Part shown: one piece after another, positions 6,667 to 47,825 of the stretch
Layout of the letters: each line of letters starts with the position of its first letter
Numbering within the stretch: position 1 is the first letter of the stretch
Program-made: the position numbers and the translations under genes
The notes under the pieces: generated by a model
Seen by the model: only the letters and a program-made list of their open reading frames with translations
The model's database searches: none
Told to the model about the DNA's origin: nothing
IMG/VR virus record: IMGVR_UViG_3300044613_004618
Coordinates: 62,001-126,000 of that record
DNA from: a virus
Reading direction: 5' to 3' (one strand)
DNA: 64,000 nt

Positions 6667-9600
6667 ATGCCAGACTCGATCCTCTCTGGGCCGACGCAGC
6701 CGCCCCCGACGCGCGCATTTGGTGACATTAGCGCTTTGCGCAGCGGCATCTTCGATCGAGCACTGCAAAGCGCGTCTTCGCTCGAGCCAATCAAGAACGA
6801 TCTCTACACGCTCCAGCTTTCGGGCGTGCAGTACACCGGCCCGGAACGCTACACAAAGGCCGACCAGAAAAAAGCCGTCCTCACGGGCAACTCGCTTCAC
6901 CGGCGGCTCACAGGCACCTGGAATCTGATTGACAACGCCACCGGGCAGCCAATCGCGCAGCGCCCGCAGACGATCGCCCACGTGCCGTACCTTACCGACT
7001 CCGGCACGTTCGTGAACCGGGGCGTCGAGTACACCCTCGCCCACCAGATGCGCCTCAAGCCGGGCGTCTACACCCGCGAGAAGGACAACGGTGAGCTTGA
7101 GGCGCACGTCAACGTGCTGCCCGGCAAGGGTCGGATGCACCGGTACTTCCTAGACCCAAAGACCGGCGTGCTGAACATCAACATCGGCCAAGCGAAGATT
7201 CCACTCATGCCGCTGCTCAAGGCGATGGGCGCCAAAGAATCCGACATCCGCGCCGCCTGGGGCAACGAGATCACCGCCGTCAACATGGAGAAGGGCGATG
7301 CGGGAACCCTTGACAAGCTCTACCAGCGCCTTGTCTACAAGCAGGTCCCTGGACTGGACGCCGCCGCCAAGCAGAAGGCAATTGCGGACGAGTTTGCCCG
7401 CATGGAACTCGACCCCGACGTTACGCGGCGCACTCTTGGCAAGGAATACAAAAACCTTACCCCCGAGGCGATTCTCGACGTTACGAAAAAGCTCATTGCC
7501 CTCAACCGCAAAGAAGCTGATCCAGACGACCGCGACGCCATGGCGTACCAGAGCGTCGTTGGACCCGAGGATCTGATCTCCGAGCGGTTCACCAAGGACA
7601 AGCAGAGCCTGCGCAAGCTGCTCTGGAAGGCGACCGCCAGGAAGAACCTGGATCACGTCCCGACCGGCGTGTTCAACAAGGCCATTCAGGCGGCGCTGAT
7701 CGGTTCGGGCCTGGGCAGCTCGCTCGAGGAAATCAATCCGGCCGAGATCTTCGACCACCAGGGCCGCGTGACCCGCATGGGTGAGGGCGGCATCGGCTCG
7801 CTCGACGCAGTGCCCCAGGAATCGCGCAGTGTCCAGCCCAGCCACCTTGGGTTCGTGGACTTCCTGCGCACGCCGGAATCAGGCAAGGTGGGCGTCGACA
7901 TGCGCTTCGCGCGCGGCGCCATGAAGGGCGCCGACGGCAAGATCTACACGCCGGTCGTGAACATGAAGACCGGGCAGTCCGAGCTGAAAACGCCGGGCGA
8001 GCTGGCCGACATGCCGTTGGCCTTCCCCGGCGAGGACAAGGGCGACATGCCGATGGTTGCCGCGCTGGTGGGCGGCAAGATGAAGTACGTCCCGCGCGAA
8101 GAAGTCCAGTTCTCGCTGCCCCACATGGACAACACGTTCTCGGGTCTCTCGAACATGGTCCCGATGAAGTCCTACATGAAGGGCCACCGCGTGATTATGG
8201 CCAGCCGCATGTTCACCCAGGCCCTGCCACTCTCGGGTGCCGAGGCGCCGCTGGTCCAGTCCGCCGTGGCCGATAAAGACGGTGTCTCTCACGAAGACGA
8301 GATGGGAGAGCGGCTCGGCGCCGTGAAGGCGCAGTTTGCGGGCCAAGTGATTTCGGCAGAGCCGGGCATGATCGTGCTGCGCGACCGCGAGGGCAAGAAG
8401 CACGAGATCGACCTGTACAACGACATGCCATTCAACCGTAAGACGTTTTGGCACCAGACGCCGGTCGTGAAGCCGGGCGACGTAATCAAGCCCGGGCAAC
8501 TCCTGGCCCACTCAAACTTCACGAACCCGCAGGGCACTGCGGCGATGGGTAAGAACTTGCGCGTGGCCTACCTGCCGTACCAGGGTAAGAACTACGAAGA
8601 CGCCGTGGTGATCTCGGAGTCCACTGCGAAGAAGCTCACCAGTGAGCACATGTACCAGCACGAGGCCGAATGGGACGATAACAGTCACGTCGGCAAGAAA
8701 GCTTTCGTCTCGCTCTTCCCGGGCGAGTACGACAAGAAGCAGCTCGAGAACTTCGACGACAAGGGTGCCATCAAGAAGGGCACCGTGGTCAACTACGGTG
8801 ACCCGCTGATCCTCCAGGCCAAAGCCAAGGACACCGTCTACGGCAAAGTTCACCGAGGGCGGGCGGGCAACTTCACCAACGAAACGCTCACTTGGGAGCA
8901 CCACTCGCCGGGTGTAGTTACTGACGTCGAGCACACCAATAAGGGCGTGTCGGTCGTCGTGAAGAGCCAGGCCGAGATGCAGGTCGGCGACAAGCTCACC
9001 GGCCGCTACGGCGACAAGGGCGTCGTGGCGGACATCGTTCCCGATCACCGCATGCCCCAAGACAAGGAGGGCAACCCCTACGAGATCCTCGTCTCGCCGC
9101 TGGGCCTGATCTCCCGCGTGAATCCCGCGCAGGTCATCGAGGCGGCGCTGGGCAAGGTGGCTGCGAAGACCGGCCAGCCGTTCAAGCTCAAGGATTTCGA
9201 GAACGACAAGGACCTGGTGGATTTTGCCCAGAACGAGCTTGGGAAGCACGGCCTCTCCGATACTGAGGACGTCACTGATCCGGAAACCGGCCGTAAGATC
9301 AAAGGCGTGCTGACCGGTAACCGGTTCTTCATGAAGCTTCACCACACGGCCGAGGCCAAGGGCCAGGGACGCGCGATGGGTAGCTACACCGCCGAGGGCA
9401 CTCCGGCCAAGGGCGGCAGCGAGGGCGCCAAGCGCGTCGGCATGCTGGATCTCGGCGCGCTGCTCTCGCACGGCGCCGGGAAGGTCGTCCGCGACGCGAA
9501 GATGGTCCGCGGCCAGGCCAACCCCGAGTACTGGTCGCAGTTTATGTCGGGCTACACTCCGCCGCTTCCCAAGGTCCCGCACGTCTACGAGAAGTTCGTC

Positions 9601-11043
9601 AACCAGCTCAAGGGCGCCGGGATTAACACCGTGCGCACCGGCACGAAGACGCACATCACGGCGCTCACCGACAAGGACGTGGACCAGCTGGCCGGTGACC
9701 GCGAGATCACGAGCTCAGAGACCGTTGACTGGAAGGGGCGTCTCAAGCCGATCAAGGGCGGCCTGTTCGACGAGACGCTCACGGGCGGCCACGGCGGCAA
9801 CCGCTGGAGCAAGATCACGCTCCACGAGCCGATGCCCAACCCGGTCATGGAGGAGCCGATCCGCCGGGTGCTCGGACTGACCGAGAAGGATTTTCGCTCG
9901 ATCCTCGCCGGGCAGACGCAGTTTTTCGACAAGACCGGCCCGCAGGCCATTCAGGAGGCGCTGGGCCGGATTAACCTGCCCAAGGCGATCGAACAGGCCC
10001 GGTTAGATATCAAATCGGGCCGGAAGACTCTCCGCGACGCTGCAGTGCGGAAGCTGGGCTACCTCAAGAGCGCCGAGGCGCAGGGCATTCATCCCCAGGA
10101 CTGGATGATGACCAAGGTCGGCGTGCTGCCGCCCCTGTTCCGGCCGGTTTCGACGATGGGGGCCAAGAAGCTGCCGCTCGTGGCCGACGCGAACTACCTC
10201 TACAAGGAGCTGCTCGACAGCAACAACGCCCTGAAGGAAGCCTCCGGCGCCCTGAGCGAGTTCGGCGACGAGCGGCTGGGCCTGTACGACGCCATGAAGG
10301 CCGTCTCCGGCCTGGGCGACCCGCTGCAGCCCAAGAACCAGGAGCGCCGCGTGAAGGGCTTCCTCCAGCACATCTTCGGCAGCTCGCCCAAGTACGGCAC
10401 CGTCCAGCGCAAGCTCCTCAGCACGACGACCGACCTGGTCGGCCGGGCCGTGATTACGCCGAATCCCGACCTGAACATGGACGAGGTCGCCCTGCCCGAG
10501 GACAAGGCCTGGGAGGTCTACAAGCCGTTCGTGGTGCGCGGCCTGGTGCGGCGCGGCATGCCGCGGATGCAAGCGCTCGACGCCATTGAAAAGCGCGACA
10601 AGGCTGCTTTTGCCGAGCTGAATACGCAGATGTCGTCGCGGCCAATCGTAATCAACCGTGCGCCGGTGCTCCACCGATACGGTATGATGGCGTTCTATCC
10701 GAAGCTGACCAAGAACAAGGTCATGGAGGTTAACCCGGTCATTACCAAGGGCTTTGGCGCCGACTTTGACGGTGACGCGATGCAGTATCACGTCCCCAGC
10801 ACAGAAGACGCCGCCAAGGAAGCCGTGGAGAAGATGCTGCCCAGCAAAAACCTCTTCTCAACAGCCAGCTTCAAGGCGCACTACGTGCCGAACAAGGACT
10901 ACCAAACCGGCATCTACCTGGCCACGAGCCGGATCGACAAGAAACAGAAGCCCAGGGTATACAGGTCACAGCAGGACGCTATAAACGCCTATCGCCGCGG
11001 TGAGATTGACGTCGATACCCCGGTGCATATCGTCGAGAGTTAA
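6667..11043 (+). CDS. RNA polymerase beta subunit fused to the N-terminal half of beta'
   Basis: A 1458-residue catalytic subunit of a bacterial-type multisubunit RNA polymerase. Residues 1 to about 970 follow beta: a TPESGKVGVDMRF box (TPEGPNIGL region), KNLRVAYLPYQGKNYEDAVV, and GDKLTGRYGDKG (residues 774-785, holding the two active-site lysines). The beta end is GRAMGSYTAEGTP (about 901). From about residue 1000 it follows beta': KPIKGGLFDETL (1027), DWMMTKVGVLPPLFRP, NRAPVLHRYG (1330) and the metal-binding DFDGD (1366-1370; residue 1364 is Gly where most enzymes have Asn). It ends at AINAYRRGEIDVDTPVHI, about where the cyanobacterial gamma (rpoC1) subunit ends. The beta' zinc ribbon is missing and there is no cysteine anywhere. 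No strong ribosome site precedes ATG 6667, which is 5 nt after the previous stop. Confidence 0.97.
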   Translation: MPDSILSGPTQPPPTRAFGDISALRSGIFDRALQSASSLEPIKNDLYTLQLSGVQYTGPERYTKADQKKAVLTGNSLHRRLTGTWNLIDNATGQPIAQRPQTIAHVPYLTDSGTFVNRGVEYTLAHQMRLKPGVYTREKDNGELEAHVNVLPGKGRMHRYFLDPKTGVLNINIGQAKIPLMPLLKAMGAKESDIRAAWGNEITAVNMEKGDAGTLDKLYQRLVYKQVPGLDAAAKQKAIADEFARMELDPDVTRRTLGKEYKNLTPEAILDVTKKLIALNRKEADPDDRDAMAYQSVVGPEDLISERFTKDKQSLRKLLWKATARKNLDHVPTGVFNKAIQAALIGSGLGSSLEEINPAEIFDHQGRVTRMGEGGIGSLDAVPQESRSVQPSHLGFVDFLRTPESGKVGVDMRFARGAMKGADGKIYTPVVNMKTGQSELKTPGELADMPLAFPGEDKGDMPMVAALVGGKMKYVPREEVQFSLPHMDNTFSGLSNMVPMKSYMKGHRVIMASRMFTQALPLSGAEAPLVQSAVADKDGVSHEDEMGERLGAVKAQFAGQVISAEPGMIVLRDREGKKHEIDLYNDMPFNRKTFWHQTPVVKPGDVIKPGQLLAHSNFTNPQGTAAMGKNLRVAYLPYQGKNYEDAVVISESTAKKLTSEHMYQHEAEWDDNSHVGKKAFVSLFPGEYDKKQLENFDDKGAIKKGTVVNYGDPLILQAKAKDTVYGKVHRGRAGNFTNETLTWEHHSPGVVTDVEHTNKGVSVVVKSQAEMQVGDKLTGRYGDKGVVADIVPDHRMPQDKEGNPYEILVSPLGLISRVNPAQVIEAALGKVAAKTGQPFKLKDFENDKDLVDFAQNELGKHGLSDTEDVTDPETGRKIKGVLTGNRFFMKLHHTAEAKGQGRAMGSYTAEGTPAKGGSEGAKRVGMLDLGALLSHGAGKVVRDAKMVRGQANPEYWSQFMSGYTPPLPKVPHVYEKFVNQLKGAGINTVRTGTKTHITALTDKDVDQLAGDREITSSETVDWKGRLKPIKGGLFDETLTGGHGGNRWSKITLHEPMPNPVMEEPIRRVLGLTEKDFRSILAGQTQFFDKTGPQAIQEALGRINLPKAIEQARLDIKSGRKTLRDAAVRKLGYLKSAEAQGIHPQDWMMTKVGVLPPLFRPVSTMGAKKLPLVADANYLYKELLDSNNALKEASGALSEFGDERLGLYDAMKAVSGLGDPLQPKNQERRVKGFLQHIFGSSPKYGTVQRKLLSTTTDLVGRAVITPNPDLNMDEVALPEDKAWEVYKPFVVRGLVRRGMPRMQALDAIEKRDKAAFAELNTQMSSRPIVINRAPVLHRYGMMAFYPKLTKNKVMEVNPVITKGFGADFDGDAMQYHVPSTEDAAKEAVEKMLPSKNLFSTASFKAHYVPNKDYQTGIYLATSRIDKKQKPRVYRSQQDAINAYRRGEIDVDTPVHIVES
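10003..10014. repeat. GATATC palindrome, TTAGATATCAAA
   Basis: In the polymerase fusion gene, encoding L-D-I-K with the rare TTA leucine codon. Confidence 0.5.
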
Positions 11044-11056
11044 ACACGGAGGTTTA
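11041..11056 (+). promoter_or_regulatory. Shine-Dalgarno-in-loop hairpin
   Basis: TAAAC, loop ACGGAG, GTTTA: a perfect 5-bp stem presenting the ribosome-binding core in a hexaloop, directly before ATG 11058. The 5' arm contains the TAA stop of the polymerase gene. It is one of five hairpins of the same design in the window. Confidence 0.55.
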
Positions 11057-11057
11057 C

Positions 11058-11786
11058 ATGTTCACGGTTAATCCCGAACTTCTTACGCTCGCCCGGCAGG
11101 CTTTTGAAAAGTCTGCCGTCGTGCCGTCCGACCCGGCAATGATGGCGGCAGGCGGCGCGCCTCCGATGGGTGGTGGAGCTCCCGATCCGTCAATGATGGG
11201 CGTGCAAGGCGCTGCGCAGCCGGTTGATCCGGCGACGGCTGCCATGGGCGCCGCCCCGCCGCCGGGCGCTGACCCGACGGGCGCCGCGACTGCCGCTGCG
11301 CCTCCGGCCGCGGCTCCAGCCCCGATGCCCCCGGCGACGCCCACCGGCGGCGCTCCGGGTCAGCAGAAGCTCAAGCCCGAGCAGATGATGCAGATGCTCG
11401 ACTACCGGCTCTACAACATGCAGCAGCAGCTCACCGCGATCATGAACGCGATGGGCGTCCAGGTCCCGCCCGAGTCGCTTGTCCTGCCGCCCGGCACGAC
11501 CGGCGCTCCTCCGGCCGAGACGGCGTTGCCTGGCGGTCCGATGGCGCCGCCTCCCCAGGATCCCAACGCTGCCGGTGGCCCGATGCCGCCGGGAGGCCCG
11601 CTGCCCCCAGGCGGCCCGATGGACCCTAGCCAGCCGCCCGTGGACCCCAGCGCTGCCAAGCAGGCGAACTGGTGGGACGCGCCGGTGGCGAAGTTTGTCC
11701 AGGCCAACCCGGAAGAGCCCACCACGACGCAGCTCAAGGCAGCGGCGGTCGGCGCGCTTCTCCGGAGCCTGAACAGTGCGCGTTAA
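11058..11786 (+). CDS. Pro/Gly/Met-rich protein between the two polymerase genes
   Basis: A 242-residue low-complexity protein. The N-terminus has FEKSA (residues 16-20), the motif shared by head-module proteins. Residues 25-105 and 150-205 are made largely of A, P, G and M. Between them is a short helical, Gln/Met-rich segment (EQMMQMLDYRLYNMQQQL), possibly a coiled coil. The C-terminus is helical. It has no cysteine. A Shine-Dalgarno hairpin (11041-11056) precedes the start, and the end overlaps the next gene by 11 nt. Its place inside the polymerase operon suggests a polymerase-associated or virion linker protein; no family is recognised. Confidence 0.55.
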   Translation: MFTVNPELLTLARQAFEKSAVVPSDPAMMAAGGAPPMGGGAPDPSMMGVQGAAQPVDPATAAMGAAPPPGADPTGAATAAAPPAAAPAPMPPATPTGGAPGQQKLKPEQMMQMLDYRLYNMQQQLTAIMNAMGVQVPPESLVLPPGTTGAPPAETALPGGPMAPPPQDPNAAGGPMPPGGPLPPGGPMDPSQPPVDPSAAKQANWWDAPVAKFVQANPEEPTTTQLKAAAVGALLRSLNSAR

Positions 11787-12015
11787 GCTTCAGAACAAGC
11801 TGCAGCCGACCGCGCGGCCCGCGGACAGCGTGGTCATCGAGGACGATCAGGGAAACCCGATCTTCGTGGCGATCCAGTTCGCTGAGTCGATCATGATGTC
11901 AGACATCAACGACCCGGATTTCCACTCGGTCCTTCGCCAGCTTGGAATTGACAAGACCGTCTCGATCACCGAGCTGCAGCCCAAACCCGTGCAGAATGTG
12001 ATCTGGAAGCCCTGA
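11776..12015 (+). CDS. Small hypothetical protein in the polymerase operon
   Basis: A 79-residue soluble protein starting with GTG 11776, which has GGAG 9 nt upstream and overlaps the previous gene by 11 nt. It contains a probable beta hairpin (VVIEDDQGNPIFVAIQF) and a short acidic helix. Two bases separate its stop from the start of the beta' C-terminal gene, so the three are almost certainly co-translated. The size and position would suit a small polymerase accessory subunit (an omega-like role), but I see no sequence resemblance to omega. Confidence 0.5.
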   Translation: MRVKLQNKLQPTARPADSVVIEDDQGNPIFVAIQFAESIMMSDINDPDFHSVLRQLGIDKTVSITELQPKPVQNVIWKP

Positions 12016-12017
12016 CC

Positions 12018-13898
12018 ATGCTCAAGACCACACTAGGCCAGCTGCTTGTCAATCAGGCGCTACCCGAGGACATGCGCAACTATGAGCGTGTCCTGACCAA
12101 GAAGGACATGGGCAAGCTGGCCACCGAACTGGCGCAGAAGCACCCGGATAAGTACCGGGACGTTATGAAGCGCTTGCACGACGCTGGCCGGGACGCGGCG
12201 TACACTACGAACGGTCTGTCGTTCGGGCTCAAAGATATCAAACCGACGCTGGCCGCCCGGGACATCCAGCAGCGTGTGCAGCGGCAGCTCCGCGGGATTC
12301 TGGCCGACCGGAAACTCGACGACAAGACGCGCTCGCTGGCGATTCTCAAGTTGGCCGCAGGCGCCCAGAGCGAGCTGATCGACAAGGTCTATGAAGAAGC
12401 GCGGGGCGTGGACAATCCCCTGGCGCACCAGGTTGCCGGGTCTGCCGTTGGCAACAAGTTCTCGTTGAACTCGCTCATCGGCGCCGACATGCAGTACGTC
12501 GACCACAAGAACGAGCCGATCCCCATTCCTGTGATGCGCGGCTACGGCCAGGGCCTGCGTCCCGTGGAATACTTTGCGGGTGCCTTCGGCACCCGCAAGG
12601 GCGTGATGGATCTGAAAACAGCCACCGCAGACGCTGGCTTTTTCGGCAAGCAGCTCGCCCAGATGACGCACCGCCTGCTTGTCACCGACGACGACGAGCG
12701 CGACGAGGAGCGCCTCGCCGCCGCGCACGACCGCGGTTATCCCACCGACGTCGACGACACCGACAACGAGGGCGCCCTGCTCGCCCGGCCGGTGGGGCCC
12801 TACAAGCGAAACACGGTCCTGACTCCCAGGATCCTGAAAGATATCAAAGAGATGGGCATCCAGGACATCCTGGTCCGTAGCCCGCTCGTGGGCGGCCCAG
12901 AAGACGGCGGCGTTTACGCCAAGGACGTCGGTTACCGCGAAAAGGGCCGCCTGCCGCCGATCGGCGACTATGTCGGCGTCGCCGCGGCCCAGGCTCTCTC
13001 TGAACCGGTAACCCAGGCGCAGATCAGCTCGAAGCACTCCGGCGGCGTCGGCGGCGCGGGCTCAATCTCAGGTTTTAAGGCGATCAACGCCCTGGTCCAG
13101 GTCCCCAAGAAATACCCCGGCGGCGCCACCCATGCGCAGCTCGACGGCCGCGTCCAGGAGATCCGCGAAGCGCCCCAGGGCGGCCATTACGTCCAGATCG
13201 GAGGCCAAGATCACTACGTCCCGGTCGACCAGGAACTCACGGTCAAGAAGGGGCAGGAGATTGAGGCCGGGGACTCCATCACGAGCGGCATGCCCAACCC
13301 ATCAGAAATTGTCCGGCACAAGGGCATCGGCGAGGGGCGGCGGTACTTTGTCAACGCCATGCGCCAGGTGCTCCAAAATTCAGGAATCTCGCCCCATCGG
13401 CGCAACATCGAGCTGCTCTCGCGGGGCTTGGTAAACCACGTCCGCATGACCGACGAGCACGGGGATTACAACCCGGACGACGTCGTTCCCTACTCGATGC
13501 TCGAACGGAGCTGGCAGCCGCGGCAGGGAAGCGTTACGGGCGCCCCCAAAAGTTTGACGGGGCATTATCTCGAGCGCCCGGTGCTTCACTATTCCATCGG
13601 CACAAAAATCGGCAAGAACGTCGCAGGCACGCTCCAAAAGTACGGTATTAACAACGTCGAAGCGCACCGCGAGCCGCCGCCGTTCCAGCCCGAGATGGTT
13701 CGCGGCATGTCGAACATTTCTAACGACCCGGACTGGATGACTCGCATGCTGGGCTCGTACCAGCAAAAGGGGCTGATGGACAGCGTGCACCGCGGCGCAG
13801 TGAGCGACACGGCCGGAAGCAGTTTTGTGCCGTCCCTGGCCCGCGGCGAGACGTTCGGTGTGGCCGGAGCCACGAGCGGATGGCGCCCACAAACGTGA
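12018..13898 (+). CDS. RNA polymerase beta' C-terminal half
   Basis: A 626-residue protein completing the beta' subunit. The N-terminus (TTLGQLLVNQALPEDMRNY) matches the beta' segment just after the rpoC1/rpoC2-type split. GTRKGVMDLKTATADAGFFG (residues about 191-210) is the bridge helix. The trigger loop runs QALSEPVTQAQISSKHSGG from residue 325: the usual histidine (H340) is kept, but the neighbouring conserved Met-Arg (E. coli 932-933) reads Ile-Ser. The remainder follows the beta' C-terminal domain up to about residue 560, then a diverged tail. There is no large insertion in the trigger loop and no cysteine, so the second beta' zinc site is also absent. It starts 2 nt after the small accessory gene. 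Confidence 0.96.
   Translation: MLKTTLGQLLVNQALPEDMRNYERVLTKKDMGKLATELAQKHPDKYRDVMKRLHDAGRDAAYTTNGLSFGLKDIKPTLAARDIQQRVQRQLRGILADRKLDDKTRSLAILKLAAGAQSELIDKVYEEARGVDNPLAHQVAGSAVGNKFSLNSLIGADMQYVDHKNEPIPIPVMRGYGQGLRPVEYFAGAFGTRKGVMDLKTATADAGFFGKQLAQMTHRLLVTDDDERDEERLAAAHDRGYPTDVDDTDNEGALLARPVGPYKRNTVLTPRILKDIKEMGIQDILVRSPLVGGPEDGGVYAKDVGYREKGRLPPIGDYVGVAAAQALSEPVTQAQISSKHSGGVGGAGSISGFKAINALVQVPKKYPGGATHAQLDGRVQEIREAPQGGHYVQIGGQDHYVPVDQELTVKKGQEIEAGDSITSGMPNPSEIVRHKGIGEGRRYFVNAMRQVLQNSGISPHRRNIELLSRGLVNHVRMTDEHGDYNPDDVVPYSMLERSWQPRQGSVTGAPKSLTGHYLERPVLHYSIGTKIGKNVAGTLQKYGINNVEAHREPPPFQPEMVRGMSNISNDPDWMTRMLGSYQQKGLMDSVHRGAVSDTAGSSFVPSLARGETFGVAGATSGWRPQT
12231..12242. repeat. GATATC palindrome, AAAGATATCAAA
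   Basis: In the beta' C-terminal gene, encoding K-D-I-K. Confidence 0.5.
12837..12848. repeat. GATATC palindrome, AAAGATATCAAA
   Basis: Second copy in the beta' C-terminal gene, same phase (K-D-I-K). Confidence 0.5.
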
Positions 13899-13959
13899 TT
13901 CTGTAGGATGTAAGAGCTACGACACGGTAAATTATCGCTTACACGTGTCTTATGATTGC

Positions 13960-13975
13960 GCCGCACGGAGGTGGC
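13960..13975 (+). promoter_or_regulatory. Shine-Dalgarno-in-loop hairpin
   Basis: GCCGC, loop ACGGAG, GTGGC: a 5-bp stem with one G-T wobble, placing the ribosome-binding core in the loop before GTG 13980. The design is the same as at 11041, with a different arm sequence. Confidence 0.5.
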
Positions 13976-13979
13976 TACT

Positions 13980-16355
13980 GTGTACAACCGGAAGAAGACT
14001 GCGTCGTCGACGGCTCACTGGCTCCAGGTCGTCCGTTCTCACAACCGGACCCAGACCAAGCAGGCCGATTTTGGCGGCAAGGGCGACTCGACCTCGTTCG
14101 AGCAGGCCTTTAGCAACCTGGCGCACGCCTATCTCCGCGACTCGGCGCCGAAGCTTCTCGACCACGAGATCGGCTTCCAGCTCCTCGACCGGGACCGCGA
14201 GAACACCAAGGCCATCGGGGTGTTCGCCTTCAAGGTCGGCTCGAACTGGCTCTACGCGCCCGTGTTCTTCCTGAACGGCGACCTCAAGGGCCACGAACTC
14301 CTGTACATCAAGAACCAGGACATGTTCGTACCGCTCAAGGAAAACTGGATCAACTACCTCGTCAACCGCAAGCCCAACATCCTGGGCTCTGGCGTCGAGC
14401 GGAACATGACCCAGCTGGGCATCCGTCAGCCCGACTTCACCCAGCTCTCCCGCAGCCCGGCAAAGTTCGGCTCGGCCCGTCCGACGCTCAAGGAGATGAT
14501 GACGGCAGTCATGCCAGCCTTGGCCAAGACCGCCACGATGAACACGGCGCTGGCGTTTCAGGAGATCGGCCGAACGCTCGACCTGCCGAGGTTTCTTAAG
14601 GAAGCCCGCCTTACGACGATCGACATGCTCGTGAAGACGTTCCAGGACGCCCCGGCGCTGGCCAAGGCGTTCGACGAGTTCCACGGCCTGGACGTGATCA
14701 AGGAGGCCGCTGCTGCTGCCAAGGTGCGTGAGAACGCCCCGAAGATCGCCAGCGTCCTGTCGGAAGCGCCGGAAAAGAGCCCGGCTGTCGCCGGGCTCAA
14801 GATCATCGCCTACACGAAGACGGTGCAGATGAAGCTGCCGCCGGAGACGACCGAGGAGGATCAAGAGAAGCTGCTGCGCGACGGTGTGCTCATCCTCGAC
14901 CAGCGCGACCGGGACAACGTCTCGATCCCCTATCACATCCAGGTCGAGAAGAAGCTCTGGAACCCGACCAAGAGCGGCCTGTACGACATCCTCGTCAAGC
15001 CGGGCAACATCGAGCGGGTCTACATCGCCATGTTCCCGATGGGCGCCGCAAAGCGCTCGGACTTCGTGACCGTGGTCCGCACCGAGGGGAAGCCCGAGTG
15101 GATCAACACCCGCGCCGACCAGGTCTTCTGCATCGCCTGCCCGACCCAGCAGGAAGAGGAAGAGTGGTTCAACGGCCTGCCCGACGCCGACAGCCTGCCG
15201 TCGAGCGGCCGCTACATGCTCGTCAGCCAGCGCGGTGACGCCACCGTACCGGTCCGCGTGATCCGCGAGTACGGCGAGAGCGAGTTCGGCACGACGAGCT
15301 ACGAGGTCCACATGGAGGACCACGCGAAGTTTCCGCCCAAGGGCTCGATCGGCCCGTGCGGCTACAGCGACCCGCTCAACTACGACAAGTGGCGCGACGG
15401 CGTGCGGATTCACCTCAACGGCAAGAAGGGTTCCAGCCTGCGCGCGAGCATGGGCGACATCTTCGTGCCCGAGGGTTTCAAGCTCCTCAAGTGCGCCCCC
15501 GGCGAGGATGACGCCGAGACGGCCGAGGACCAGGGCGCCTGCGGCTGCGGCTCGAGCGAGATGCCGCCGCTGATGCCGGGCAACCTGGCGGACGCCCAGC
15601 TCGAACTGATGAGCAAGACGGCCAGCCTCGAGGTCTACCACAACGGCACCGAGGTCGTGATCAATAAGGAAGCCGCCCGCAGCCCGATCGCGGCCATCGT
15701 GACGCTCGTTGAGCATCACGGCTTGCGCGAGGACGCTGCCCGCGAGATTCTCAAGCAGGCGGCCGCCAAGCGGAAGTTCGCCTGCCAGGTGAAGTACGCC
15801 GCTCCTTACGGTCCGCCGATGATGGTGAACCAGGGCCCGACGGCTCCAAGCGACCCGGGCCCGGTGATGGGCGGCGAGACGATCATGGGCGCCGACGTGC
15901 CGACCCAGATGGGCATCGACATCGGCATGCCGGTGGCAGACATGTCGGCCAGCCTTACGGACCGCCAGATCTACAACCCGAACACCCGGCTCGACAAGAA
16001 GGACGTCCGCAGCGTGCTGCAGGCGGCCCAGTCTGGCCAGAAGGAAGTGTTCGACACGGCAATGATTGGCAGCATGCTCCGGGCCGTTCGGGACGACTCG
16101 ATGGTCGATCGTTACATGGGCGATCTGACCAACGGGCTCGACAAGCTCGGCCGCATTCTGTTCATGTTCTACTGGCACGGCGACCGGTTCGCCGAGCGCT
16201 ACGGCAAGGCCGACATGCCAGAGCTGGAGGACTCGCTCCGCAACGCCTTCGAGATGCTCGGCGACGTTATTCTCTTCCTCAAGCAGAAGACCATCGAGCC
16301 GTATCCGGAAGAGTCTGGCGCGGACGCCGATCTCTCCAATGTGGCCAGCGCATAA
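13980..16355 (+). CDS. Large head-module protein, unknown
   Basis: A 791-residue protein, not recognised. The N-terminal 130 residues look like a compact alpha/beta domain (AIGVFAFKVGSNWLYAPVFF). A helical stretch follows (about 175-280). A roughly 250-residue beta-rich middle contains the Cys pairs CIAC and CGCG. The C-terminus (about 690-780) is a conserved-looking helical domain (LDKLGRILFMFYWHGDRFAE). LAKTA and MSKTA carry the hydrophobic-x-K-x-A motif. GTG 13980 is chosen because CGGAGGTGG sits 5 nt upstream. It opens the block between polymerase and capsid genes, so a major internal or vertex virion protein is likely. A portal role cannot be excluded but I see no portal signature. Confidence 0.5.
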   Translation: MYNRKKTASSTAHWLQVVRSHNRTQTKQADFGGKGDSTSFEQAFSNLAHAYLRDSAPKLLDHEIGFQLLDRDRENTKAIGVFAFKVGSNWLYAPVFFLNGDLKGHELLYIKNQDMFVPLKENWINYLVNRKPNILGSGVERNMTQLGIRQPDFTQLSRSPAKFGSARPTLKEMMTAVMPALAKTATMNTALAFQEIGRTLDLPRFLKEARLTTIDMLVKTFQDAPALAKAFDEFHGLDVIKEAAAAAKVRENAPKIASVLSEAPEKSPAVAGLKIIAYTKTVQMKLPPETTEEDQEKLLRDGVLILDQRDRDNVSIPYHIQVEKKLWNPTKSGLYDILVKPGNIERVYIAMFPMGAAKRSDFVTVVRTEGKPEWINTRADQVFCIACPTQQEEEEWFNGLPDADSLPSSGRYMLVSQRGDATVPVRVIREYGESEFGTTSYEVHMEDHAKFPPKGSIGPCGYSDPLNYDKWRDGVRIHLNGKKGSSLRASMGDIFVPEGFKLLKCAPGEDDAETAEDQGACGCGSSEMPPLMPGNLADAQLELMSKTASLEVYHNGTEVVINKEAARSPIAAIVTLVEHHGLREDAAREILKQAAAKRKFACQVKYAAPYGPPMMVNQGPTAPSDPGPVMGGETIMGADVPTQMGIDIGMPVADMSASLTDRQIYNPNTRLDKKDVRSVLQAAQSGQKEVFDTAMIGSMLRAVRDDSMVDRYMGDLTNGLDKLGRILFMFYWHGDRFAERYGKADMPELEDSLRNAFEMLGDVILFLKQKTIEPYPEESGADADLSNVASA

Positions 16356-24169: not shown

Positions 24170-25096
24170 ATGCCCACTCAGCAAGAAATCCAGCTGCTCA
24201 ACGAGACCCTTTTCGAGCAGCTTGACACTCCCGGCATGCAGAAGCAGGCCGTGGACGCGGTTAACGACTTCACGCGCACCAAGATGCGTGAAGACGGGTT
24301 CTACCGGCGGATTATGCCGCCGCTCACCATCACCAATGACGAGCTCGACCGCCAGGTCGATACCGACAAGCCGGTGAAGGTGGTCGACAAGGAACCCGAT
24401 TCCCCGGCGGCTGTGTCGCTCCCGTTCGCGACGCTCCCGATCAACTTCTACATCCGTGGCCCGCGCTACCGCGTCATGTTTGACCGGATCGTGTCGCCCC
24501 GCGCTGTGAAGGACGTCGACGAGCTGCGCACCTACGTGATCGACATCCGTCAGGTCCTTTCCGACAACATGATCAAGGACATGCTGGCGGAAGAGGATTC
24601 CAAGTTCATCGCCGCGTTCAACGCTGTCCTCCCGACCCCGGGCGTGGAGAACGTTGCGTCGGGCGCTGTCCAGTACGAGGAGATCCACGGCGGCATCACG
24701 CGTGAGACGATCGTCGACGCGCTGAAGGTCATGCCGCGGACGCCCTCGCACTTCGAGGTCGAGACCTGCCTGGTGAACAACATCACCATCAAGGAGCTGC
24801 TGAAGTTCGGCCGCGACGAGATGGGTGGTGATTTCTCCCAGGACATCATCAAGAACGGTTGGGCGGAGACCAACTTCCTCAACTGCCGCTGGATCGTGAC
24901 GATCAAGCGCGACCTCGTGCCGGACGACTCGATGTTCATGTTCGCGTCGCCCAAGTTCATTGGCAAGAATTACGAGCTCGAGCCGACCACGATGTACATT
25001 CGTCGCGAGGCTTACATGCTCGAGTACTTCGCCTACAACACGCAGGGCGGTTCGTTCGGTCACACGAACGGTCTGGCTCGCGTCGATTTCAAGTGA
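24170..25096 (+). CDS. Major capsid protein, HK97-fold type
   Basis: A 308-residue protein with the general layout of HK97-fold capsid proteins. It has a helical N-terminal arm (NETLFEQLDTPGMQKQAVDA) and a long central region with an E-loop-like segment (RKMREDGF-type, PITNDELDRQV). A P-domain and A-domain pattern follows, with DDSMFMFASPKFIGKNYELE near the C-terminus. MQKQA at residues 23-27 is a candidate maturation cleavage site and would remove a short N-terminal arm. The gene is preceded by a Shine-Dalgarno hairpin and followed by a strong 12-bp hairpin, consistent with high expression. Protease and scaffold-like genes lie just upstream. I see no competing candidate for capsid in the window. 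Confidence 0.85.
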   Translation: MPTQQEIQLLNETLFEQLDTPGMQKQAVDAVNDFTRTKMREDGFYRRIMPPLTITNDELDRQVDTDKPVKVVDKEPDSPAAVSLPFATLPINFYIRGPRYRVMFDRIVSPRAVKDVDELRTYVIDIRQVLSDNMIKDMLAEEDSKFIAAFNAVLPTPGVENVASGAVQYEEIHGGITRETIVDALKVMPRTPSHFEVETCLVNNITIKELLKFGRDEMGGDFSQDIIKNGWAETNFLNCRWIVTIKRDLVPDDSMFMFASPKFIGKNYELEPTTMYIRREAYMLEYFAYNTQGGSFGHTNGLARVDFK

Positions 25097-42729: not shown

Positions 42730-44389
42730 TGCGGCCCACTACGTCACAACGAGTTTTGGGATTACGGCCGAGTTCACCACCGACAGCGGCACGGTGGTGT
42801 TCAAGGACATCATCTCGATCTCGGCGTCGTTCGGGCTCAACACGGTGCCGATGGCCTCGCTCGTGGTCGCAACCGGCCGCGAAGCCAAGGAAAGCGGGAA
42901 CCTGGCCACGATCCACACGGCCCGGCAGAAGCTGCGGCCCGGCGACGAGGTCAAGGTCACGTTGACGGTCACCGCGCACGACGGCCAGATCAACAAGATC
43001 GAGCCCGGAACCTACGTGATCTTCGTTGGCAAGTACGCCGGACAGGGCTACCAGCGCAGCTACAACCACGCGAACTACGTCCTGCACCTGATGCACTGGC
43101 TGGACGACCTTAACCAGGGCTCAATGCTCAACGGCAACTGGTTTCCGGGCGCGCCGTACGACATGGGTCAAAACGGGCTGTACGTGGCGCTAGGCCCGAC
43201 CCAGGAAGGGCAGGCGGGCGGCGACCGCGGCCATCCGGTTCCCAAGATCGACGCCGAGGGTCGGTTCATCAACCTCACCACGATCCAGCGCGACCTGTGG
43301 GGCGCGGCGATCAAGCCGATTTTCAACAAAATCGCCAAGTGGCCCGTACCTCGTTATCAAGACGGCAACCGCAACCAGAACGAAAAAGACAACAAGTTTG
43401 TGCTTGACGCCCTGCAACGGATGCCGGGCCGCGGCGCGCCGTATTACACGCCGCTCCAGCTTGACATGAGCGGGCTCAAGTCGTTGAACGTGGCAAACGC
43501 CGTGAGGTCGGCGCTGACTAAGGACGCGCTCGACTCGTTTGCGTACACCACGTTCTGGAACAAGCTCGTCGGTGAATATGCGCCGCAGTTCTACTTTGCC
43601 ATTTCTCCGGCAGCAGAGTTTGCGCTGCCGGTTCCGTTTTTTGCAGGCCTGAGCACGCCTTACAAGACCATCACGGCCGACGAGTACAACTATTCGAACT
43701 TCAACGCCAGCCAGGTGAGCGTGTTAGAGTCCGTGGACATTTTCTACAACGCCCAATCGGATTCGGGCCTGCAGCAGGGCACCACGCTGCCGGGCGTACC
43801 CAAGCCATCCTACAAACTTGTGCCCGGCTTTTACCCGCCGCGCAATCAACAAAAAAACAAGCGCCGCGGATTGAAACTCATTAAAGAGCCGCCCAGTTGG
43901 ATGACCAACATCTTTCCGGGTCCGGCTTACTCCACCCGCAGCACAGGCATCGGCGCCGACGGGAAAGACACGTGCTCGCCCAAAGAAGGCGACCAGCAAA
44001 TGCCGTCCGGTTTTGTCGGCGCAGACGAGGCCAACCTGGAAATCAAGACCAGCGACGCGTTAACGCGCTTTGCCGAGCACTGGTACAAGACCGAGGTCCT
44101 GTATCAGCGGCACGGCGAGATGTCGGGCAAGCTGCGGTTTGACATCGCGCCGGGCAGCATCGTTGGCATTGAGACCGCGGACTACGACCTCGGCATGCGC
44201 GATACGCTCGTCGCCACGGTGACGCAGGTCTCGTACGTGATCAACGCCGAGCAGGCCACTGCGGGAACCAGTTTCACGCTGGCGCACATTCGCTCCAGCG
44301 CGGAAAACCAGGAAGAGACACTCGTAAGCACACGCCCGCCGCTGTACCTCAGCCCGTGGAAGGGCGCGCCCCTTGCCATCAAGACTTAA
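42722..44389 (+). CDS. Baseplate hub protein, gp27/gpD-like
   Basis: A 555-residue beta-rich protein with the general pattern of tail hub proteins. The N-terminal beta barrel (SFGLNTVPMASLVVATGREA, LTVTAHDGQINKIEPGTYVI), a middle insertion, and the C-terminal RHGEMSGKLRFDIAPGSIVG with TLVATVTQVSYVINAEQATA resemble the two-barrel gp27/gpD fold. It lies directly before the sigma-like gene and after other baseplate proteins. The assignment is by pattern, not by a single catalytic motif. Confidence 0.6.
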   Translation: MSNAAHYVTTSFGITAEFTTDSGTVVFKDIISISASFGLNTVPMASLVVATGREAKESGNLATIHTARQKLRPGDEVKVTLTVTAHDGQINKIEPGTYVIFVGKYAGQGYQRSYNHANYVLHLMHWLDDLNQGSMLNGNWFPGAPYDMGQNGLYVALGPTQEGQAGGDRGHPVPKIDAEGRFINLTTIQRDLWGAAIKPIFNKIAKWPVPRYQDGNRNQNEKDNKFVLDALQRMPGRGAPYYTPLQLDMSGLKSLNVANAVRSALTKDALDSFAYTTFWNKLVGEYAPQFYFAISPAAEFALPVPFFAGLSTPYKTITADEYNYSNFNASQVSVLESVDIFYNAQSDSGLQQGTTLPGVPKPSYKLVPGFYPPRNQQKNKRRGLKLIKEPPSWMTNIFPGPAYSTRSTGIGADGKDTCSPKEGDQQMPSGFVGADEANLEIKTSDALTRFAEHWYKTEVLYQRHGEMSGKLRFDIAPGSIVGIETADYDLGMRDTLVATVTQVSYVINAEQATAGTSFTLAHIRSSAENQEETLVSTRPPLYLSPWKGAPLAIKT

Positions 44390-44393
44390 AGCC

Positions 44394-45206
44394 ATGCCCA
44401 ACGAAAAAGCACCCGGAATGCCCTCGATCCTGGACGACATTGCGCCGCCTTTCTCGGCCCCCCGCAAACCGCAGGGCGTCGGTGAGGACTTCGACGCCAC
44501 GTTCACCCAGTGGCAGAAGCAGCGCACGCCGGAGAACAACACGCGACTGCTCCAGAGCGTGCAGCCGGTGATCGACACGGCGCTGACCAGCTACGCCGGG
44601 GGCAACACGAGCCCCACGATGCGCAGCCGGGCGCGGCTCATGGCGCTCAGGGCCATGGAGAGCTTCGACCCGCAGAAGGGGAACGTCCGCACGCACCTCC
44701 TGAGCCAGCTGCAGAGCCTGCGCCGCGCGTCGGCCCAGGCGCAGAACATCATCTCGATTCCCGAGCAGGTCGGCCTGGACTACCAGCGGCTCACCGAGAG
44801 CGAGAACGAGCTGCGTGACCAGCTGGGCCGCGACCCGACCGACGACGAGCTGGCCGACCACACGATGCTCTCCCCGCGGCGCCTCCGGAAGATCCGCTCG
44901 TTCTCCCAGCCGGTGGCCGAGGGCTCGACCATCATCGAGACCGGCGATGAGCTGAACGACGGCGGCGTGGCCAGCACGATCCCCGGCAGCACCCGCGCCG
45001 CCGACGCCTGGCTCGATTTCGTGTACGACGATCTGGGCGCGACTGACAAGCTCATCATGGACATGACCCTGGGCCGGAACGGGCGGCGGCGAACCAGCAC
45101 GCAAGAGATCGCCAGGCGTCTTAATATCACGCCCGGCGCCGTGAGTCAGCGCGCCGCCAAGATTCAGGCCATGCTCGACAAGCGATACACCCAGGGAGGC
45201 TTCTGA
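44394..45206 (+). CDS. Sigma-70-family protein
   Basis: A 270-residue protein resembling a primary-type sigma factor. Residues about 50-122 match region 2: ARLMALRAMESFDPQKGNVR, then LRRASAQAQNIISIPEQ. About 124-185 matches region 3 (LGRDPTDDELADHTMLSPRR). About 205-265 matches region 4, a helix-turn-helix (STQEIARRLNITPGAVSQRA) that would read the -35 element. There is no region 1.1. It starts at ATG 44394, 4 nt after the hub gene, and its stop overlaps the next start, so it is translated with baseplate genes. With the phage polymerase at 6.7-13.9 kb, it is the obvious candidate specificity factor. It has no cysteine. The unusual site leaves open a structural role. Confidence 0.8.
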   Translation: MPNEKAPGMPSILDDIAPPFSAPRKPQGVGEDFDATFTQWQKQRTPENNTRLLQSVQPVIDTALTSYAGGNTSPTMRSRARLMALRAMESFDPQKGNVRTHLLSQLQSLRRASAQAQNIISIPEQVGLDYQRLTESENELRDQLGRDPTDDELADHTMLSPRRLRKIRSFSQPVAEGSTIIETGDELNDGGVASTIPGSTRAADAWLDFVYDDLGATDKLIMDMTLGRNGRRRTSTQEIARRLNITPGAVSQRAAKIQAMLDKRYTQGGF

Positions 45207-46181: not shown

Positions 46182-47825
46182 ATGGCTCTGGAAATTGGCA
46201 GCCTGTCGGAACTCGATAGCGGCAAGATCGACGCGATGTTCGCGACGTTTACGCAACTTATGCAGGAGCGCCACCCCGAGGTCGAGCTGACCCGCGGCGT
46301 CTTTCATGACCTGGTCGTCTATTTCAACGCGGCCCTGAACGCCTCGGTTCGGGAAAACATCGACCGGGTGCTCGCCAGCAACAGCCTGCTCTCCATCTCG
46401 ACCAACCCCGAGCTGGCCAACGACACCCTGGTCGACAAAGTCCTCGCGAACTACAACCTGACCCGCGACACGGGCAAGCAGGCCGTGGGCGAAGCGACGC
46501 TGGTGTTCAATTCGGACACCCAGACCACCATCCTGGAAAGCATCGTCTTCTCGGCCGACGGCATCCAGTTTCAGCCGACGCAGACGTTCACGGCGCTGCC
46601 CACCGGCTCGATTCCCGCCGACGACAGCCAGCGGGTCATGATCGCCGCGGGCGACGGCTCGTACGTCGTGAACATCCTGCTGCGCGCCGTTGCGGTCGGT
46701 GTTGCCGGTAACATCCGCCGGGGCACCAAGCTCGTTCCCGACAACATCATCAACAACACGGCCCAGGCGTTTGCCGCCGTGGATTTCATCAGCGGCGCCG
46801 AGCCGCTCACCAACGCCGAGTACCTCAGCAAGCTCTCGGCGGGGCTGGCTTCCAAGGCGATTGGCGGGCGGCAGAACTACATCGCTCAGATCCGCAACCA
46901 GGCGGCCTTCACGAATATCCCCCATTTGTCGATCCTGGGCTGCGGCGACGTCGAGCAGCAGCGGGACCAGCACAGCCTGTTCCCCATCTCCGGCGGCGGC
47001 AAGATTGATATCTATGCCCAGACAAACCACGACGCCCAGGAGCAGGAGCACACGCTGGAGGCCGTCTACGTCGGCCCGGGTCAGTCCGGGACGAGCTGGC
47101 AGGTCGTGCTGGACCGCAACACGGCGCCGGGCTTCTACGAGGTTGTCCGCATCGCCAAGCCGCTTGCTCCCAACGAGACCGGCTACGCGATCACACAGGA
47201 CATCCGAAACTTCGACCTCTCGGACCTCGATTTCATCCCGGACGTCGTCAGCGTGCCCGAGGCGGCCTACACCCGCTACCAGACGGCCGTGATCCGCTTC
47301 GAGGACACCGACACCCAGCCGGGCACCCTGGTCCCCCAGACGAGCCGGGCAATCTACTCGGTCACGACGACCGGCCTGCCGCTGATCGACGAGCTGCAGG
47401 ATTACATGTCCGACCGGGACGTCCGCAGCCGCGCCGCCGACGTGCTCGTGAAGGCCGCCGTCCCCTGTTTCACAAAGATATCTTTCGAGATCCGCAAGGG
47501 CGCCAACGACCCGGCGATCGACACGGCGCCGGTCAAGACCGCACTGGTGGCCGCCATTCGGGAGATTGGCTTCACCGGGCAGCTCCACGCCTCGACAATC
47601 TCCGGCGTCGTCCACCAGTTTCTCTCGGGCCGCGCGGCGCTGGGGGCGATTGACATGTTCGGCCGCATCCGCCGTCCGGACGGTTCGATCCAGTACGTTC
47701 GCGACAACACGCTCCTTCAGATCCCCAACGACCCGACGCGCCTGGTCACCGGGCGCACCACGGCGTTCCTGATCGGCGAAGAGGACATCGAGATCTCCTT
47801 TGTCGCCGCGGGCTTCACGAACTAG
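46182..47825 (+). CDS. Baseplate wedge protein, gp6/J-like
   Basis: A 547-residue protein typical of the baseplate J family. The N-terminal helical part (MFATFTQLMQERHPEVELTR) is followed by the recognisable AVAVGVAGNIRRGTKLVPDN and FISGAEPLTNAEYLSKLSAG region, where J proteins have a conserved glycine-rich beta domain. A C-terminal helical and strand part completes it. It follows the gp25-like gene. Two GATATC palindromes occur here (47004, 47474), one in the phase AAG-ATA-TCT with the rare ATA codon. The wedge role is strongly supported by order and sequence. Confidence 0.85.
   Translation: MALEIGSLSELDSGKIDAMFATFTQLMQERHPEVELTRGVFHDLVVYFNAALNASVRENIDRVLASNSLLSISTNPELANDTLVDKVLANYNLTRDTGKQAVGEATLVFNSDTQTTILESIVFSADGIQFQPTQTFTALPTGSIPADDSQRVMIAAGDGSYVVNILLRAVAVGVAGNIRRGTKLVPDNIINNTAQAFAAVDFISGAEPLTNAEYLSKLSAGLASKAIGGRQNYIAQIRNQAAFTNIPHLSILGCGDVEQQRDQHSLFPISGGGKIDIYAQTNHDAQEQEHTLEAVYVGPGQSGTSWQVVLDRNTAPGFYEVVRIAKPLAPNETGYAITQDIRNFDLSDLDFIPDVVSVPEAAYTRYQTAVIRFEDTDTQPGTLVPQTSRAIYSVTTTGLPLIDELQDYMSDRDVRSRAADVLVKAAVPCFTKISFEIRKGANDPAIDTAPVKTALVAAIREIGFTGQLHASTISGVVHQFLSGRAALGAIDMFGRIRRPDGSIQYVRDNTLLQIPNDPTRLVTGRTTAFLIGEEDIEISFVAAGFTN
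47004..47015. repeat. GATATC palindrome, ATTGATATCTAT
   Basis: In the J-like gene at 46182, encoding I-D-I-Y. Confidence 0.45.
47474..47485. repeat. GATATC palindrome, perfect AAAGATATCTTT
   Basis: In the J-like gene, read as AAG-ATA-TCT-TTC (K-I-S-F). Only 460 bases after the copy at 47004, in a different phase. Confidence 0.6.

What the first reader, a model, noticed from the sequence alone, without database searches (positions are those of the whole stretch)
6667..13898. Phage-type RNA polymerase with beta fused to half of beta', and beta' split as in cyanobacteria
Seen: one 1458-residue chain carries the beta motifs (GDKLTGRYGDKG at 774-785) and then beta' up to and past DFDGD (1366-1370). 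A separate 626-residue gene carries bridge helix and trigger loop. Known: beta-beta' fusions occur in a few bacteria, a beta' split at this interval defines cyanobacterial and plastid rpoC1/rpoC2, and phiKZ- and AR9-type phages split both subunits without fusing them. The combination (fusion plus rpoC1/C2-type split) in a tailed-phage structural locus is one I do not know of. It may be a distinct lineage of viral polymerase.
Basis: partly seen in the sequence, partly recalled or inferred. Interest (0 to 1): 0.82.

Follow-up and report, generated by a model that had tools for sequence, protein, structure and literature searches.

The report
Fused-then-split virion RNA polymerase of phages
Some large tailed bacterial viruses carry a bacterial-type RNA polymerase whose two big subunits were fused into one chain and later cut again at a different place, and a cultured relative has both pieces plus a matching sigma factor in its virus particles, so the virus probably injects a ready-made transcription machine.

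Summary
ORF 6667..11043 (+, 1458 aa) is complete RNAP beta joined in frame to beta' up to just past DFDGD. ORF 12018..13898 (626 aa) is the rest of beta'. It is not an assembly error: 78 of 80 sampled IMG/VR loci (58 distinct proteins) and cultured phages (Salmonella phage Arash, Vibrio phage D69) have the same layout. The cut lies in the interval used by cyanobacteria and phiKZ-like phages, but a few residues away, and the tree separates it from cyanobacteria. All fused phage RNAPs form one clade (beta and beta' trees agree). Its basal members are single-chain beta-beta' proteins of 2153-3012 aa; holding these together as one clade is rejected (AU p = 2.6e-5). So the order is fusion first, then fission after the catalytic barrel, then another fission in some Arash relatives. 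Genomes of this group carry one phage sigma factor and no detectable alpha. The Arash homologues of both RNAP pieces and of sigma are abundant in its virions (published proteomics). Best reading: an alpha-less, sigma-guided virion RNAP. I found no paper describing the fusion-plus-split. Novelty: new variant of a known kind.

The parts
6667..11043 (+). Fused RNAP subunit, 1458 aa: complete beta joined to beta' N-terminal half
   Evidence: homologue of Arash gp206 (phmmer 7e-240)
6667..9636 (+). beta moiety, residues 1-~990 (E. coli beta 1-~1340)
   Evidence: Alignment; Pfam Rpb2_2/3/6
8986..9021 (+). beta catalytic barrel motif GDKLTGRYGDKG (residues 774-785)
9637..9840 (+). Junction: beta C-terminus runs with only a short linker into beta' ~26-115; the N-terminal zinc-binding domain of beta' is deleted
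   Evidence: alignment; the same junction and deletion in Arash and in single-chain relatives
9664..11040 (+). beta' N-terminal moiety, residues ~1000-1458 (E. coli beta' ~26-548), with sigma-binding coiled coil and catalytic DPBB
10762..10776 (+). Catalytic DFDGD (residues 1366-1370)
11058..11786 (+). 242-aa Pro/Gly/Ala-rich ORF between the two RNAP genes, no family match
11776..12015 (+). 79-aa ORF directly before beta'C, no family match
12018..13898 (+). beta' C-terminal subunit, 626 aa (E. coli beta' from ~567)
   Evidence: predicted fold matches T. thermophilus beta', E 3e-27
12561..12665 (+). Bridge helix (residues 182-216)
   Evidence: alignment; 35-residue helix in the model
12972..13052 (+). 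Trigger-loop helix/loop VAAAQALSEPVTQAQISSKHSGG (catalytic His kept)
44373..45206 (+). Phage sigma-70-family factor, 277 aa (regions 2.2-4), in the baseplate gene cluster; homologue of Arash virion sigma gp10
13956..16355 (+). Homologue of Arash virion protein gp218, next to beta'C in the window (a helicase gene lies between in Arash)
   Evidence: 2e-13; gp218 in virion
24170..25096 (+). Major capsid protein, homologue of Arash MCP gp226
   Evidence: 7e-36; weak HK97-fold capsid match
46182..47825 (+). Baseplate-wedge-like protein, homologue of Arash gp13

Best explanation
The two genes encode a catalytically competent two-chain RNA polymerase of bacterial type: beta+beta'N in one polypeptide and beta'C in another. 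A phage sigma-like protein provides promoter recognition. The enzyme is packaged in the virion, enters the host with the DNA and transcribes the first phage genes (virion RNAP). The covalent beta-beta' link probably does part of the job that the alpha dimer does in bacteria, because no alpha is found. Evolutionarily, an ancestral phage fused whole beta to whole beta' with loss of the beta' zinc domain; in the ancestor shared with Arash the chain was then cut after the catalytic barrel. Shown: architecture, conservation, fusion-then-fission order, co-occurring sigma, homology to Arash virion proteins. Inferred: packaging in this particular phage, sigma binding to this enzyme, early transcription, and the fusion replacing alpha.
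For: Architecture in 78/80 sampled loci and in cultured phages. Catalytic residues kept: beta ED, GDK, DKG; beta' NRAP, DFDGD, bridge helix, trigger-loop His; also the sigma-binding coiled coil. One sigma in 18/18 genomes of this lineage incl. Arash and D69, one gene family; alpha in 0/18 while 13 of 14 control genomes ring. Only one RNAP locus per genome in 21/21. Arash virion proteomics (PMC10585845): gp206 = fused chain, most detected protein (128 unique peptides, 3516 spectra); gp216 = beta'C (40, 1210); sigma gp10 (24, 467); that is 2.3, 2.0 and 2.0 spectra per residue, close to 1:1:1, against portal 1.5 and MCP 4.3. Structural modules homologous between window and Arash. One fused clade with single-chain forms basal: FastTree, IQ-TREE C20, AU p = 2.6e-5, beta-only and beta'-only trees agree. 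Same junction in all fused forms.
Against: The Arash authors note that abundant enzymes may simply co-purify with particles. There are no proteomic data for the window phage itself, and RNAP identity between window and Arash is only ~33%. Other replication enzymes (primase, ligase) also appear in the Arash list, mostly with 2-14 peptides. Sigma is divergent: region 3 is over the Pfam cut-off, regions 2 and 4 are undetected or below it. Host alpha could still be recruited. No promoter motif was established.
Confidence: 0.72

Rival explanations
1. Non-virion polymerase: the enzyme is made during infection for middle or late genes and co-purifies with particles; early genes are read by host RNAP.
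For: Only one RNAP set per genome, so it may also have to serve later genes; the Arash authors raise carry-over.
Against: Virion signal far above typical non-structural enzymes and near 1:1:1 for the three parts; genes lie beside the portal gene in Arash and beside structural homologues in the window.
Confidence: 0.2
2. The beta' cut was inherited from a cyanobacterial rpoC1/rpoC2, and beta was fused afterwards.
For: Same inter-domain interval; the review raises a cyanobacterial source for phiKZ-type RNAPs because of the shared split (PMC7598289).
Against: Phage RNAPs branch apart from all sampled bacteria incl. cyanobacteria; the cut is on the other side of the TTxG motif; unsplit single-chain forms are basal in the fused clade (AU p 2.6e-5).
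Confidence: 0.03
3. Assembly or annotation artefact, or the two chains are rejoined after transcription (intron, inteins, frameshift).
For: Relatives do carry group I introns and LAGLIDADG inteins in these genes.
Against: 78/80 loci and cultured genomes agree; no Rfam intron at the window locus; no intein domain at the chain ends; two ORFs lie between; in Arash both chains are detected as separate gene products.
Confidence: 0.01
4. Simply members of the published mReC clade: nothing new beyond a gene-layout detail.
For: Same deep phage RNAP group in the tree next to unfused phage RNAPs, some with Gp23-type capsids; some fused proteins have the NADxDGD motif used as the mReC filter (22/80).
Against: mReC MCPs are PF07068; 0/18 fused+split genomes and 0/5 further fused-clade ones match, while 6 unfused phage-RNAP records do over the cut-off; the window has GADFDGD and fails the motif filter; the paper mentions fusion only for crAssphage.
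Confidence: 0.3

Closest known systems
Salmonella phage Arash ('Arashvirus') and Vibrio phages D69/D148/D181
   Same: Same fused beta-beta'N chain (33% identity over 97-98%), separate beta'C; Arash also has homologous sigma, MCP and baseplate genes
   Different: Genes annotated as plain 'beta' or hypothetical; fusion/split not noted; Arash has a helicase gene beside beta'C; D181 has a group I intron in beta
mReC, multimeric-RNAP-encoding Caudovirales (Weinheimer and Aylward 2020, PMC7481178)
   Same: Deep-branching phage beta/beta' still alignable with cellular RNAP; tailed phages
   Different: Published description speaks of beta and beta' subunits and a PF07068 capsid and does not describe a fusion; the fused clade lacks PF07068
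phiKZ/AR9 vRNAP and nvRNAP
   Same: No alpha/omega; beta' split after the DPBB; a virion version exists (PMC7598289)
   Different: beta also split, no fusion, no sigma sequence homologue in those phages; far more divergent sequences
crAss-like phage RNAP, P23-45 RNAPs, YonO
   Same: Viral RNAPs with both barrels in one polypeptide; some are virion RNAPs
   Different: Belong to highly divergent single-subunit families (PMC10770324); here the chain is a near-complete bacterial-type beta + beta'N
Helicobacter / Wolbachia beta-beta' fusions (NF007172, NF011417; organisms from own knowledge)
   Same: In-frame beta-beta' fusion
   Different: Window chain scores 337 against a cut-off of 5372 and 288 against 4632 bits, lacks beta'C and the zinc domain; independent fusion
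Cyanobacterial/plastid rpoC1-rpoC2
   Same: beta' cut in the same inter-domain interval
   Different: beta separate; cut downstream of TTxGR; not related in the tree

Membership tests
Two-barrel (cellular-type) DNA-dependent RNA polymerase | beta DPBB lysines and beta' DxDxD barrel, bridge helix, trigger loop | tested here: met
mReC (PMC7481178) | beta and beta' in a tailed phage, clade distinct from cellular RNAPs | tested here: met
mReC (PMC7481178) | NADxDGD motif in beta' (selection filter) | tested here: not met
   Window GADFDGD; 22 of 80 in its lineage have NADFDGD
mReC (PMC7481178) | Major capsid protein PF07068 | tested here: not met
   0/18 and 0/5 fused-clade genomes; positive over cut-off in 6 unfused records
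mReC (PMC7481178) | TerL PF03237 | tested here: inconclusive
   1/18 over cut-off (Arash), 1 weak; G000 is incomplete
phiKZ-type RNAP | both beta and beta' split | tested here: not met
   beta intact and fused
phiKZ-type RNAP | no sigma sequence homologue | tested here: not met
   sigma present 18/18
phiKZ-type RNAP | no alpha | tested here: met
   alpha found in 0/18
Cyanobacterial rpoC1/rpoC2 | split with TTxGR at end of RpoC1; cyanobacterial ancestry | tested here: not met
Arash-type fused+split RNAP clade | beta-beta'N fusion without beta' zinc domain, separate beta'C, sigma in baseplate cluster, homologous MCP | tested here: met
Virion RNAP | protein present in the virion and injected | not testable with these tools
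   Presence shown only for the homologue Arash by published MS; injection unknown

The most novel reading that the evidence does not exclude
A virion-packaged, sigma-containing RNAP holoenzyme that assembles without alpha because beta and beta' are covalently joined: the fusion replaced the alpha platform, after which beta' could be cut freely (single chain -> fused+C -> beta-tip | N | C), giving a natural series of subunit fission states within one phage clade. The published jumbo-phage virion RNAPs have no recognisable sigma.
Probability: 0.45. Interest if true: 0.75.

Novelty: new variant of a known kind. Interest (0 to 1): 0.62.

Why it matters
Phage RNAP splits have been read either as relics of a pre-LUCA multi-piece enzyme (PMC7824862) or as possible inheritance from cyanobacteria (PMC7598289). 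This clade gives a polarised case: fusion first, then fission at the same inter-domain site that cyanobacteria and phiKZ-like phages use, so that site can be cut independently. It also bears on the open question of how phage RNAPs assemble without alpha (stated in PMC7598289), and offers cultured systems (Arash, Vibrio D69) in which a compact sigma-guided virion RNAP can be tested. Many metagenomic and some GenBank genes of this kind are at present labelled plain beta or hypothetical.

Tried and rejected
Cyanobacterial origin: disfavoured by tree and cut position. Assembly error: rejected. Intron or trans-splicing intein at the window split: none found. 'Unfused phage' hits such as Staphylococcus phage SA 1306 Kay and Bacteriophage sp. 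MT836236 group with Bacillus and Treponema, so probably bacterial contamination, not used as evidence. The search for related loci with the Vibrio 1.031.O beta' gave nothing. Genome contigs gave only cellular rpoBC (40). phiKZ/AR9 rows were not put in the tree; their split site is taken from the review. Promoter search by word enrichment gave a dispersed palindrome, not a clear promoter. AlphaFold of both chains together was not available; the partial model of the fused chain (pLDDT 76, pTM 0.50) matches both beta and beta' chains in the PDB but its domain arrangement is not reliable.
Full report
WHAT IS THERE. The window is bases 62001-126000 of a 127,388-base virus record. ORF 6667..11043 (1458 aa) and ORF 12018..13898 (626 aa) exist as described. 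Pfam assigns beta domain 6 and beta' domain 2 to the first chain and beta' domain 5 to the second. In an alignment with E. coli and 19 other bacteria, residues 1-~990 follow beta to its end (E. coli ~1340); after about ten residues the chain continues at beta' ~26 and ends at beta' ~548; the second chain starts at beta' ~567. The N-terminal zinc-binding domain of beta' is missing. Catalytic residues are all present, and the sigma-binding coiled coil of beta' is recognisable. The second zinc site is lost in the window but kept in Arash and in the deep relative L117. The predicted structure of the second chain (pLDDT 79) contains a 35-residue bridge helix and matches T. thermophilus beta' (E 3e-27). 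The predicted second part of the fused chain matches both beta and beta' chains in the PDB.

NOT AN ARTEFACT, AND NOT ALONE. Of 80 IMG/VR loci sampled, 78 carry the fusion as one ORF (58 distinct proteins) and 68 also show the separate C-terminal gene in the fetched flank, at a median distance of about 1 kb downstream. Cultured phages show the same arrangement: Salmonella phage Arash (gp206, 1525 aa; gp216, 606 aa) and Vibrio phage D69. The Arash paper names them beta and beta' and does not remark on the fusion.

EVOLUTION. A profile survey of viral loci found five layouts: whole beta+beta' in one chain (2153-3012 aa, two of the longer ones shown to contain inteins); beta+beta'N with separate beta'C (window and Arash); beta plus the first ~100 residues of beta', then beta'N, then beta'C (a sister group of Arash); separate beta' and beta; and, in cultured YerA41 and EP_H11, beta' in two parts. 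In a 75-row tree and a site-heterogeneous 42-row tree all fused forms are one clade, apart from bacteria and cyanobacteria. Single-chain forms are basal; holding them as one clade costs 124 log units (AU p = 2.6e-5). The beta-only and beta'-only trees agree on every one of these groups. The junction sequence and the zinc-domain loss are shared by single-chain and split forms. The simplest history is therefore one fusion, then fission after the catalytic barrel, then a second fission within beta'N in part of the Arash group. The root rests on the bacterial outgroup and branches are long, so the depth of the clade is not claimed. Mobile elements are frequent in these genes: LAGLIDADG inteins at several conserved sites and group I introns at one beta site in Vibrio phage D181 and a metagenomic relative. 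They are a plausible, unproven source of fission.

THE SPLIT SITE. In cyanobacteria the TTxGR motif ends RpoC1; here TTLGQ opens the C piece, as TTIGR does in phage EP_H11. A review reports the same inter-domain site for phiKZ vRNAP and nvRNAP.

HOW IT PROBABLY WORKS. All 18 genomes tested from this lineage encode exactly one protein with sigma region 3. In the window it is ORF 44373..45206, of one gene family across all 18, alignable with SigA from region 2 to region 4. None encodes a detectable alpha and each has one RNAP only. The sigma was not detected in single-chain or unfused relatives, which may reflect divergence. The window sigma is homologous to Arash gp10 (E 1e-17) and lies likewise in a tail/baseplate cluster; the RNAP genes, MCP and several structural genes are homologous and in the same order. 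In Arash virions the fused chain is the most detected protein, and beta'C and sigma are also prominent; dividing spectra by length gives 2.3, 2.0 and 2.0 per residue, near equimolar (my arithmetic data; crude). Hence the proposed mechanism: a sigma-bearing RNAP packaged with the genome and delivered for early transcription. Steps shown: architecture, conservation, presence in Arash particles. Steps inferred: the same in the window phage, injection, activity, promoter choice by this sigma, and the fusion standing in for alpha.

COMPARISON WITH THE LITERATURE. The nearest published set is mReC. The window fails two of its criteria (motif and MCP family), and several unfused relatives found here meet the MCP one, so the fused clade is best called a sister or sub-branch. 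Whether some of its members were in the original 97 contigs could not be checked. phiKZ/AR9 enzymes share the beta' cut and the lack of alpha but have split beta and no sigma sequence homologue. Bacterial beta-beta' fusion models match far below their cut-offs. No paper in the open library described the combination; most subscription papers were not searchable.

Noticed in passing
window 1764, 16670, 18082, 27263, 28274, 28955, 42220, 47475, 53075 and 20 more in the 127-kb record: Dispersed palindrome WAGATATCTW (often CAAAGATATCTTTG): 9 in the window against 0.03 in shuffles, 29 in the record against 0.075 expected in a 62.5% GC genome; some sites 36-124 nt upstream of genes, others inside ORFs; enriched in close relatives, not in Arash. 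Operator-, promoter- or packaging-like; unexplained.
   Followed up: partly
L114, L052, L113, L231, L300; similar inserts in L074, L100, L112: LAGLIDADG inteins inserted at several conserved sites of phage RNAP beta, beta'N and beta'C, one inside the trigger-loop helix; also non-intein-looking inserts in L103 and L124.
   Followed up: partly
L339:4931-5211 (Vibrio phage D181), L315:9536-9817: Group I introns followed by homing-endonuclease-like ORFs at the same position of the beta coding sequence in two separate phages; D181 RNAP pieces are annotated as separate hypothetical proteins.
   Followed up: yes
L316-L331: A third architecture: beta fused to only the first ~100 residues of beta', then separate beta'N and beta'C genes, sometimes with an unrelated gene between.
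   Followed up: partly
L083, L091, L093, L107, L108 beta'C genes: beta'C carries a roughly 290-620 aa, often Pro/Ala-rich C-terminal extension in some phages; perhaps a virion tether.
   Followed up: no
OR844998.1 (L037), MT836236.1 (L038): Records labelled phage carry RNAP genes that group with Bacillus and with Treponema; probably bacterial contamination.
   Followed up: yes
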